From: Simplicispira sp. 125
Lineage (GTDB): Bacteria; Pseudomonadota; Gammaproteobacteria; Burkholderiales; Burkholderiaceae_C
DNA: 64,000 nucleotides
NCBI RefSeq assembly: GCF_003096555.1
Contig: NZ_QEKM01000001.1
Location: forward strand, 3,844,001-3,908,000
Direction: 5' to 3'
Shown here: positions 50,723-52,601 of the stretch, in pieces
Position numbering within the stretch: position 1 is the stretch's first letter
Layout: every line of letters starts with the position of its first letter
Program-made: the position numbers and the translations under genes
Notes under the pieces: generated by a model
The model's input: the letters and a program-made list of their open reading frames with translations, nothing else
Databases searched by the model: none
What the model was told of the DNA's origin: nothing

Positions 50723-51268
50723 ATGGTGCGTATGGCCTTGACGCGCCCCCTCTCTCAACTGACGATCCAGTCGTTTGGCGACATCAGCCGCTTCCTGCGC
50801 GAAGGCGTGGCGGATGAGGAATCGCGCCAGATGCGGGACAGCATGGTCGTGCTGGCGCAAGCGGTCGACGTAGCGGTGCGCACGCGCCGTGCGCGAGACG
50901 ATGCTGCCAGCATCACTCGCCATGCGGCCGCACTGGTGCAGGGCGTGCGGGCGCACCAGCTATTTCTCACTGGGCTGGGCTCCGCCTGGCATTCGTTGTA
51001 TGAGTTTGGCGCCTACCAGAGCGCCTTGCGTGAACTGCGCCGCGCCGTTGAAGCGTGGCATAAGACGCTGGAGCAGCGCCGCCCGGACGAAGGCGCTGGG
51101 TTTGATCGGATGGAACTGCTGGCCTGGCGGACGCTGGGCGAAGGCCTGCTGCTCATCGACATGTACGAGCAGGGCGGGCAGGCCCACAGCGAACCGCCTC
51201 CGTCGGAACGTCGGCCCCGCAACCCGTGGACACGGGCACTGGACTGGTGGCGTCGCGCGCGCCGCTGA
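50723..51268 (+). CDS. Conserved-looking helical protein of unknown function
   Basis: A 181-aa soluble protein rich in arginine, alanine and leucine, with long helical stretches such as RRARDDAASITRHAAALVQG and SALRELRRAVEAWHKTLEQR. The C terminus is basic (RALDWWRRARR). No domain was recognised. The ATG at 50723 or 50732 could be used; neither has a good ribosome-binding site. It precedes the DAHP synthase leader by 12-30 bp. Confidence 0.65.
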   Translation: MVRMALTRPLSQLTIQSFGDISRFLREGVADEESRQMRDSMVVLAQAVDVAVRTRRARDDAASITRHAAALVQGVRAHQLFLTGLGSAWHSLYEFGAYQSALRELRRAVEAWHKTLEQRRPDEGAGFDRMELLAWRTLGEGLLLIDMYEQGGQAHSEPPPSERRPRNPWTRALDWWRRARR

Positions 51269-51298
51269 GGTCTGGAACAAATGTGCTACATTGTGCGA

Positions 51299-51355
51299 AT
51301 GCACATGCCCTGCGCTTTTTATTTTTGGTTCTGGTTCTCGGTCCCTGGCGGATGA
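51299..51355 (+). CDS. Aromatic-rich leader peptide of the DAHP synthase gene
   Basis: A short frame encoding MHMPCAFYFWFWFSVPGG. Seven successive codons, positions 7-13, specify F, Y, F, W, F, W, F. An in-frame ATG at 51281 would lengthen it by six residues. This is the layout of amino-acid attenuators: starvation for Phe, Trp or Tyr would stall the ribosome in this run. A terminator hairpin follows at 51392-51424 before the DAHP synthase start. Confidence 0.75.
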   Translation: MHMPCAFYFWFWFSVPGG

Positions 51356-51391
51356 GAGGCAAGCGCGCAAGCACCTGAATACTTCCCACCC

Positions 51392-51424
51392 AACCGCCGA
51401 TGCTGCAAAGCCCGGCGGTTTTTT
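51392..51424 (+). terminator. Attenuator terminator upstream of DAHP synthase
   Basis: AACCGCCG at 51392-51399 pairs with CGGCGGTT at 51413-51420 (8-bp GC-rich stem), directly followed by a run of T to 51424. GGCGG at 51347-51351, at the end of the leader frame, can pair instead with CCGCC at 51394-51398, giving an alternative antiterminator. Confidence 0.8.
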
Positions 51425-51467
51425 GTTTTCAGCCCTTTTTTTCAAACCTTCCGAGAGAAAGCACCCC

Positions 51468-52601
51468 ATGACAGCCATGTCCCTTCCTGCCAGCACTGAT
51501 GCCTGGTACCGCAGCGTCGAGAAAACCAGCCAGACCGACGACGAACGTATCAAGGACATCACTGTGTTGCCTCCTCCCGAGCACCTGATCCGCTTTTTTC
51601 CCATCAGCGGTACGCCGGTGGAAACGCTGATCACCCAGACCCGCAAGGCCATCCACAACATCATCGCGGGCAAAGACGACCGCCTGCTCGTCGTCATCGG
51701 GCCGTGCTCGATACACGACCCTGCCGCCGCGCTGGACTATGCCCGCCGTCTGCAGGTTGCACGCGAGCAGTACAAGGACACGCTGGAGATCGTGATGCGC
51801 GTTTACTTCGAGAAGCCGCGCACCACAGTCGGCTGGAAGGGCCTCATCAACGACCCCTACCTGGACGAGAGCTACCGTATTGACGAGGGCTTGCGCATTG
51901 CGCGCCAGCTGCTCATCGAAATCAATCGCTTGGGCGTGCCCGCAGGCAGCGAATTTTTGGACGTGATCTCGCCCCAGTACATCGGGGATCTGATTTCTTG
52001 GGGCGCTATCGGCGCACGCACCACGGAGAGCCAGGTGCACCGCGAACTGGCCTCGGGCTTGTCGGCGCCCATCGGCTTCAAGAACGGCACCGATGGCAAT
52101 ATCCGCATCGCCACCGACGCCATCCAGTCGGCCAGCCGGGGTCACCACTTCCTGTCGGTGCACAAGAATGGCCAGGTCGCCATCGTCAACACCAAAGGCA
52201 ACAAAGACTGCCACGTGATTTTGCGTGGCGGCAAGGCGCCCAACTACGACGCCGCCAGCGTCGCAGCCGCCTGCAAGGACCTGGAGGCCGCCAAGCTGCC
52301 CGCCACCCTGATGGTGGACTGCAGCCATGCCAACAGCAGCAAGCAGCATGAGAAGCAGCGGGACGTGGCGCGCGACATCGCCGACCAGATCAAGGGTGGA
52401 TCGCGCAGTGTGTTCGGCCTGATGATCGAGAGCCACCTGGTCGCCGGAGCGCAGAAATTCTCGCCCGGAAAGGAGTTGCCCGGTGCGCTGGAATACGGCA
52501 AAAGCATCACCGATGCTTGCCTGGGCTGGGATGATTCCCTGCGCTGCCTGGGCGAGTTGTCGGCGGCTGTGCAGGTACGCAGGGATCTGGCGAAGGCGTA
52601 A
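51468..52601 (+). CDS. aroG: 3-deoxy-7-phosphoheptulonate (DAHP) synthase, class I AroG/AroF type
   Basis: A 377-aa enzyme joining phosphoenolpyruvate and erythrose 4-phosphate, the first step of the shikimate pathway. Active-site segments are VVIGPCSIHDPAAALDYA, RVYFEKPRTTVGWKGLINDP, GARTTESQVHRELASGLS, IGFKNGTDGN, MVDCSHANSSKQHEKQ and MIESHLVAGAQ. The family includes feedback-regulated isozymes; the isozyme class cannot be told here, and the symbol aroG is used loosely. GAGAGAAAG precedes the ATG at 51468. Upstream leader and terminator suggest control by attenuation in response to aromatic amino acids. Confidence 0.93.
   Translation: MTAMSLPASTDAWYRSVEKTSQTDDERIKDITVLPPPEHLIRFFPISGTPVETLITQTRKAIHNIIAGKDDRLLVVIGPCSIHDPAAALDYARRLQVAREQYKDTLEIVMRVYFEKPRTTVGWKGLINDPYLDESYRIDEGLRIARQLLIEINRLGVPAGSEFLDVISPQYIGDLISWGAIGARTTESQVHRELASGLSAPIGFKNGTDGNIRIATDAIQSASRGHHFLSVHKNGQVAIVNTKGNKDCHVILRGGKAPNYDAASVAAACKDLEAAKLPATLMVDCSHANSSKQHEKQRDVARDIADQIKGGSRSVFGLMIESHLVAGAQKFSPGKELPGALEYGKSITDACLGWDDSLRCLGELSAAVQVRRDLAKA

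What the first reader, a model, noticed from the sequence alone, without database searches (positions are those of the whole stretch)
51281..51467. Aromatic-amino-acid attenuator controlling DAHP synthase
A short frame, MHMPCAFYFWFWFSVPGG, has seven consecutive Phe/Tyr/Trp codons. It is followed 36 bases after its stop by an 8-bp GC-rich terminator stem with T-run. GGCGG at the leader's end can alternatively pair with CCGCC in the terminator's 5' arm. A ribosome stalled in the aromatic run would leave GGCGG free (antitermination), whereas a ribosome at the stop would cover it (termination). The mixed Phe/Tyr/Trp content would let one switch read all three pathway end products, unlike single-amino-acid leaders.
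Basis: partly seen in the sequence, partly recalled or inferred. Interest (0 to 1): 0.75.

Follow-up and report, generated by a model that had tools for sequence, protein, structure and literature searches.

The report
Leaderless aromatic-codon attenuator for DAHP synthase
A tiny peptide gene rich in phenylalanine, tyrosine and tryptophan codons sits in front of the gene for the first enzyme of aromatic amino-acid synthesis, and comparison with related bacteria strongly suggests that how fast ribosomes read it decides whether the enzyme gene is transcribed.

Summary
The leader ORF (51299-51355), its seven-codon Phe/Tyr/Trp run, the terminator (51392-51424) and the competing GGCGG/CCGCC pairing are present. 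All 78 testable loci of 80 close relatives carry an equivalent leader, as do 39 of 40 fetched hits from the order and 4 of 6 fetched class hits outside it.

Core aromatic codons vary mainly at third positions. GGCGG is read in all three frames across families, so it is kept as RNA. Its flanking base tends to co-vary with both terminator arms. The attenuator reading is well supported but untested by experiment.

Additions: an extended -10 box lies 6-8 nt before a leader ATG in 79 of 79 sequences and no leader start has a good Shine-Dalgarno match, so the transcript is probably leaderless. The antiterminator seems to have a second helix, weak in the window. Trp is in 78 of 79 close relatives' leaders but in 17 of 37 from other families, so sensing of all three amino acids is lineage-specific at best.

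Leader-controlled DAHP synthase is reported in Corynebacterium and predicted in Acholeplasma. This looks like a new, widely distributed member of that kind, absent from Rfam 15; the key proteobacterial attenuator survey (2004) could not be read.

The parts
51284..51292 (+). extended -10 promoter-like element TGC-TACATT
   Evidence: TGNTANNNT found upstream of the leader in 79 of 79 sequences (TACATT 62, TAGAGT 7, TATATT 6, TACAGT 3, TAAATT 1); 6 nt before the ATG here, 6-8 nt in 78 of 79, and in the 79th (L016) 7 nt before its second in-frame ATG. The consensus scan reported no -35/-10 promoter pair here.
51299..51355 (+). leader ORF MHMPCAFYFWFWFSVPGG, probably leaderless
   Evidence: sequence; equivalent ORF in 78 of 78 testable loci; 0 of 79 leader starts reach -5 kcal/mol against anti-Shine-Dalgarno; third-base variation in core codons
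51317..51337 (+). run of seven Phe/Tyr/Trp codons, the inferred stalling site
   Evidence: unique in the window; last aromatic codon begins 12 or 15 nt before GGCGG in 70 of 79 sequences
51347..51351 (+). GGCGG, 5' arm of the antiterminator, overlapping the leader end
   Evidence: exact in 77 of 79 close relatives and 62 of 64 in the order-wide set, where it is read in all three frames
51354..51359 (+). GAGAGG, second antiterminator helix, 5' side
51382..51386 (+). CTTCC, second antiterminator helix, 3' side (weak in this sequence, stronger in some relatives)
51392..51399 (+). AACCGCCG, terminator 5' arm; CCGCC 51394-51398 is also the 3' arm of the antiterminator
   Evidence: CCGCC in 78 of 79 and 64 of 64
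51413..51424 (+). CGGCGGTT terminator 3' arm and T-run
   Evidence: GGCGG in 64 of 64; 99.2% of terminator cells paired
51468..52601 (+). type I DAHP synthase (aroFGH), the controlled gene
   Evidence: TIGR00034

Best explanation
It is a ribosome-mediated transcription attenuator of a DAHP synthase gene. Transcription starts at or next to the leader AUG, and ribosomes begin on this leaderless end (inferred). If charged tRNA for an aromatic amino acid is short, the ribosome stalls in the aromatic run. Its leading edge then stops just before GGCGG, so GGCGG-nn-GAGAG pairs with the pyrimidine stretch and CCGCC (antiterminator) and DAHP synthase is transcribed. If tRNAs are charged, the ribosome runs to the stop and covers GGCGG and/or GAGAG, CCGCC is left to pair with the downstream CGGCGG, and transcription ends. 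Shown here: the parts, their conservation and covariation, and their spacing. Inferred: start site, stalling, switching, and the set of amino acids sensed.
For: 78 of 78 testable loci of close relatives have the leader. 39 of 40 fetched order-wide hits have DAHP synthase just downstream. Core aromatic codons: minority letters 1, 9 and 48 at codon positions 1, 2 and 3, of 312 each, 78 of 79 sequences used. Base flanking GGCGG: Watson-Crick with the terminator 5' arm in 42 of 64, shuffled mean 27.9, reached in 2 of 5000 shuffles; 17 two-sided changes in that pair, 2 of 500 shuffles as high; terminator pair GC 36, AU 25, other 3. GGCGG starts at codon position 1, 2 or 3 in 24, 4 and 36 of 64. Last aromatic codon begins 12 nt (42) or 15 nt (28) before GGCGG out of 79. 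-10 to ATG spacing and absence of a Shine-Dalgarno.
Against: No transcript, ribosome or reporter data. The shuffles do not remove relatedness. In the leader:arm pair 16 of 64 do not pair, the next pair outward fails in 23 of 64, four of the seven pairs never vary, and the count of co-varying pairs is no higher than in shuffles (493 of 500 as high). The single-sequence fold is not better than shuffles. At equilibrium the stretch from GGCGG to the U-run prefers the terminator in 76 of 79, and in the window the antiterminator is slightly weaker (-14.8 against -16.6 kcal/mol), so switching must rely on order of folding. The second helix is weak in the window. In 4 of 79 (L031, L043, L055, L056) the stop lies 28-31 nt after the start of GGCGG, too far for a ribosome at the stop to cover it. 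Four DAHP synthase genomes of the order without a model match were inspected and none has a comparable leader.
Confidence: 0.9

Rival explanations
1. It is a plain intergenic terminator of the upstream gene plus a chance ORF.
For: The upstream 181-aa ORF on the same strand ends at 51268, 30 nt before the leader; a terminator there would serve it too. The wider upstream context is largely shared: tldD is found upstream in 70 of 78 relatives, so neighbourhood alone does not separate the two readings.
Against: The gene immediately upstream changes (the 181-aa ORF was found in 28 of 78; in many others tldD is next) while leader, GGCGG and terminator stay. Aromatic codons are under coding constraint.
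Confidence: 0.03
2. The leader works, but senses essentially only Phe (perhaps Tyr); the Trp codon is incidental.
For: In 37 leaders of other families Phe is in 37, Tyr in 34, Trp in 17. Corynebacterium aroR is reported to respond to Phe and not Tyr (PMC11802643 passage).
Against: Among the 79 close relatives Trp is in 78, each time beside aromatic neighbours.
Confidence: 0.4
3. The leader has an ordinary 5' UTR and Shine-Dalgarno, starting from a promoter further upstream.
For: One order-wide leader (L100) has GGAGCAATTG before its ATG; 3 of 37 leaders of other families score -5 kcal/mol or lower against anti-SD, and 20 of 37 lack TANNNT at 6-8 nt. No strong -35 conservation and no promoter hit in the consensus scan.
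Against: 0 of 79 close relatives' leader starts reach -5, against 70 of 79 DAHP synthase starts, though the latter count took the best ATG near the gene start; the -10 box sits 6-8 nt before the ATG.
Confidence: 0.1
4. The terminated RNA or the peptide has a second job in trans, as reported for rnTrpL/peTrpL (an addition to, not a replacement of, attenuation).
For: The S. meliloti leaderless trpL RNA and its peptide are reported to act in trans (PMC7298713, start of abstract, passages).
Against: No test here. The peptide outside the aromatic core and the GGCGG region is variable.
Confidence: 0.07

Closest known systems
Corynebacterium glutamicum aroR leader upstream of aroF (DAHP synthase), Neshat et al. 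2014 as cited in PMC11802643; aroF leader also in PMC4046766
   Same: Short leader with aromatic codons controlling DAHP synthase by transcription attenuation (passages).
   Different: Phe-Tyr-Phe, no Trp mentioned; Actinobacteria; reported to respond to Phe and not Tyr. Sequence relatedness was not tested, nor whether aroR is leaderless. Here 6-9 aromatic codons, Trp in 78 of 79, and GGCGG overlapping the leader end.
uORFC-13-1 motif, Acholeplasma aroF (PMC8632094)
   Same: Predicted leader ORF with Phe coding and an intrinsic terminator before DAHP synthase (passage).
   Different: 24 representatives, at least one Phe residue, has a predicted RBS; a prediction in another phylum.
Sinorhizobium meliloti trpL / rnTrpL (PMC7298713)
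   Same: Transcription attenuator whose RNA 5' end is the leader ATG (passage).
   Different: trp leader, controls trpE(G); trans functions reported.
Corynebacterium ilvB leader (C. diphtheriae in PMC5784534; Morbach 2000 on C. glutamicum seen only as a reference title in PMC4046766)
   Same: Leader-peptide transcript with its start site at the leader start, i.e. leaderless (passage).
   Different: Branched-chain amino acids.
E. coli trpL, pheL, ilvL, thrL attenuators (trpL and pheL in PMC11802643 passage; ilvL and thrL recalled)
   Same: Same logic; ilvL and thrL also read more than one amino acid (recalled).
   Different: Shine-Dalgarno-led leaders (recalled); E. coli aroF and aroH are repressed by TyrR and TrpR and the three isoenzymes are feedback-inhibited (PMC5343134 passage).

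Membership tests
ribosome-mediated transcription attenuator | short translated leader rich in codons for the pathway's product | tested here: met
   78 of 78 testable loci; third-base variation consistent with translation; translation itself not measured
ribosome-mediated transcription attenuator | intrinsic terminator between leader and gene | tested here: met
   64 of 64 with CCGCC and GGCGG arms, 99.2% of cells paired
ribosome-mediated transcription attenuator | mutually exclusive antiterminator | tested here: met
   pairing and three-way covariation, with exceptions; energies comparable
ribosome-mediated transcription attenuator | ribosome at the stop masks the antiterminator | tested here: inconclusive
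   spacing fits in 75 of 79; stop too far in 4 of 79; footprint size recalled
ribosome-mediated transcription attenuator | read-through responds to charged-tRNA level | not testable with these tools
   needs experiment
leaderless leader-peptide attenuator (rnTrpL-like in start) | transcript starts at the leader AUG | tested here: inconclusive
   predicted from -10 spacing and lack of SD in 79 sequences; no 5' end data
C. glutamicum aroR family | sequence homology to the aroR leader RNA | not tested
   aroR sequence not fetched; only function compared from passages
any Rfam 15 family | score at gathering threshold | tested here: not met
   0 matches in the window; only below-threshold match at the locus is RefA5, 12 bits against 91

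The most novel reading that the evidence does not exclude
Bacteria of this order commonly run amino-acid attenuators on leaderless ORFs (DAHP synthase, leuA and probably trpE leaders here). Sensing then depends on Shine-Dalgarno-free 70S initiation, and in Comamonadaceae-type genomes a single leader acts as an OR gate for Phe, Tyr and Trp at the entry of the shikimate pathway.
Probability: 0.45. Interest if true: 0.65.

Novelty: new member of a known kind. Interest (0 to 1): 0.5.

Why it matters
It proposes how many bacteria of one order adjust the first step of aromatic amino-acid synthesis to its end products, with a switch that Rfam 15 does not list and that did not appear in the ten literature searches made here. 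Its probable leaderless start gives a compact natural test of how leaderless initiation couples to RNA polymerase, and a possible sensor part for strains engineered to make aromatics.

Tried and rejected
Considered and rejected: a plain terminator of the upstream gene; a conserved small protein, because the peptide C-terminus follows an RNA element read in different frames; an Rfam family (13 related loci gave only an SRP RNA outside the leader). The own genome's second DAHP synthase (G000:C1:3133717) and the second copies in G401 and G409 have no such leader. One search stopped with an error after 24 of 79 sequences; one search repeated the fold and printed the last 57 of 79, from L024 on. 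In one search a swap test on the whole segment between GGCGG and CCGCC was only weakly positive: 38 of 63 natives better than their swapped mean. The narrower helix test was clearer as a whole (native -6.17, reassigned mean -5.40 kcal/mol, 0 of 2000 as low) but only 37 of 62 were individually better than their swapped mean, 52 of 62 better than shuffled. RNAalifold on the 79 sequences put three leader pairs elsewhere and found two-sided change in 1 of 11 pairs. Two of six fetched class-level hits (E about 3e-4) had neither leader nor DAHP synthase. Order-wide hits above about E 1e-4 often cover only the terminator part of the model and were not trusted or inspected. Leaders upstream of ilvB and pheA were not found in the own genome in the stretches taken.

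Rows dropped: L002 and L053 (too little upstream sequence); 53 of 79 near-redundant close relatives, L084 (same family) and L085 (leuA leader) from alignment A2; L079 (no Trp); L164 and L167 (leu hits not aligned by the script).

Literature: ten searches of an open-access library. No paper describing this element in Burkholderiales turned up in the listings. Panina 2001, Neshat 2014 and Vitreschak 2004 (attenuation in proteobacteria) are not held and were not read; the last could already contain it. Papers seen only as passages: PMC2965389, PMC4046766, PMC7298713, PMC11802643, PMC1262725, PMC5784534, PMC4117421, PMC8632094, PMC5343134, PMC3890552.

Full report
Observation. The downstream gene is a type I DAHP synthase. 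The run is the only one of five or more aromatic codons in the six frames of the window; about 3e-4 runs of seven would be expected under independence. Folding the window sequence alone gives no signal against shuffles, so the case rests on comparison.

Conservation. The DAHP synthase protein brought in 80 loci, many titled with genera such as Acidovorax, Variovorax, Polaromonas and Hydrogenophaga, which I recall as Comamonadaceae; some are unnamed MAGs. They are the best 80 of at least 569 that encode a relative, so the closest relatives and not a random draw. Of the 80, 78 had enough upstream sequence and 78 of 78 had a leader ORF with 6-8 aromatic residues within nine codons. A covariance model of the window plus these 78 (R1) matched 94 of 399 genomes drawn across the order, in 53 of 159 genera. 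Of 40 hits fetched, 39 had DAHP synthase at 58-84% identity just downstream; the fortieth is a leuA leader. A second model (R2) matched 115 of 399 in the order, its weak tail doubtful, and 9 of 369 in the class. Six of those nine lie outside the order and were fetched: four, in two families, have an aromatic leader and DAHP synthase; two do not. Four order genomes with DAHP synthase but no model match were inspected and have no comparable leader, so the element is widespread but not universal.

Coding constraint. In 78 of 79 sequences aligned on the FWF/YFW core, minority letters at codon positions 1, 2 and 3 number 1, 9 and 48 of 312 each. Aligning on that core favours aromatic residues but leaves third bases free. 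All 79 leaders have Phe and Tyr before GGCGG; Trp is present once in 71, twice in 7 and absent in 1. In the 37 leaders of other families 17 have all three, 17 have Phe and Tyr, and 3 have Phe only.

RNA constraint. GGCGG is exact in 77 of 79 close relatives and CCGCC in 78 of 79; in the 64 order-wide sequences 62, 64 and, for the second GGCGG, 64. The leader GGCGG begins at codon position 1, 2 or 3 in 24, 4 and 36 of 64, so it is kept as RNA, not as peptide. The base before it can pair with the base after CCGCC, which pairs in turn with the base before the 3' GGCGG. C:G:C (24) and U:A:U (16) make up 40 of 64, and L060, alone among the family rows of that alignment, is U:A:U. Leader:arm Watson-Crick pairs: 42 of 64, shuffled mean 27.9, 2 of 5000 shuffles as high; 16 of 64 do not pair at all. 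The pair-counting tool gives 17 cells with two-sided change (2 of 500 shuffles as high) and a covariation score reached by 6 of 500, but its measures that count pairs or types are not above shuffles; the next pair outward fails in 23 of 64 and four pairs never vary. The terminator has 27 two-sided cells, 0 of 500. These shuffles do not correct for relatedness. Next to GGCGG, GAGAG can pair with a pyrimidine stretch before CCGCC, strongly in some relatives (for example L024, L031, L043) and weakly in the window.

Leaderless start. An extended -10 (TGNTANNNT) occurs in 79 of 79 sequences. Its end is 6, 7 or 8 nt from the leader ATG in 11, 36 and 31; in the remaining one (L016) the second in-frame ATG is at 7. 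Against the anti-Shine-Dalgarno, 0 of 79 leader starts reach -5 kcal/mol, compared with 70 of 79 DAHP synthase starts, where the best nearby ATG was taken. In 37 leaders of other families TANNNT peaks at 6-8 nt (17 of 37), and 3 of 37 have an SD-like score. No strong -35 conservation was seen, and the consensus promoter scan found nothing. So transcription probably begins at, or one or two bases before, the AUG. In the window's own genome the leuA leader and a probable trpE leader have a similar box 7 nt before their ATG, and so, at 6-8 nt, do the relatives' copies printed (12 of 12 trp loci; 10 of 12 leu loci, two not aligned by the script).

Geometry and mechanism. The first base of the last aromatic codon is 12 nt (42) or 15 nt (28) before GGCGG in 70 of 79; six lie at 11, 14 or 18, and three at 3 because of an extra aromatic residue after the run. 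The stop begins 6, 15 or 21 nt after the start of GGCGG in 20, 15 and 39 of 79, at 13 in one and at 28-31 in four. With a ribosome covering roughly 12 nt beyond the start of the A-site codon (recalled), stalling anywhere in the run leaves GGCGG free, while a ribosome at the stop covers GGCGG or the adjacent GAGAG, except in the four late-stop sequences, which this model does not explain. Antiterminator and terminator have similar stability (means -20.0 and -17.6 kcal/mol; window -14.8 and -16.6). The stretch from GGCGG to the U-run at equilibrium contains the terminator in 76 of 79. The antiterminator is complete before the terminator's 3' arm is made, so order of synthesis would decide. This is inference.

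Surroundings. tldD lies upstream in 70 of 78 relatives and a 181-aa ORF between tldD and the leader was found in 28 of 78, so the neighbourhood is shared but the immediately preceding gene changes. The own genome has a second type I DAHP synthase without a leader.

Compared with what is known. DAHP synthase under a leader peptide is reported for C. glutamicum aroR-aroF (Phe-Tyr-Phe; responds to Phe and not Tyr; passages) and predicted for Acholeplasma aroF (passage). Leaderless leader peptides are reported for S. meliloti trpL and C. diphtheriae ilvB (passages). Rfam 15 has no match. The element is therefore, as far as these searches reach, a new and widely distributed member of a known kind, with a richer codon run. 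The 2004 survey of proteobacterial attenuators could not be read. The claim that it reads all three end products is plausible in the window's family, unproved, and not general in the order.

Noticed in passing
L140 (own genome, rc position 837); L144-L155: trpE is preceded by a conserved leader MFIHR..ITG.SDRGAWPWR with a -10 box 6-8 nt before its ATG (12 of 12 printed) and conserved residues far from the Trp codons; no T-run terminator was found by the script in the own genome, so it may not be a classical attenuator.
   Followed up: partly
L141 (own genome), L156-L166, L085/L131: leuA is preceded by a leaderless-type Leu leader (MKSFALALLLSPHGRRQ) with the same TGTGCTACATT box and, in the own genome, a T-run terminator.
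   Followed up: partly
G000:C1:3133717-3134748 (L124): Second type I DAHP synthase in the same genome, without an aromatic leader.
   Followed up: partly
window 50723-51268: 181-aa ORF with no NCBIfam match at E 0.001, detected in 28 of 78 relatives' upstream regions.
   Followed up: no
L134-L137: Same leader plus DAHP synthase in four genomes of two families outside the order; inherited or transferred is unknown.
   Followed up: partly
L031, L043, L055, L056: Leaders whose stop lies 28-31 nt after GGCGG, in a shifted frame; a ribosome at the stop should not mask the antiterminator there.
   Followed up: no
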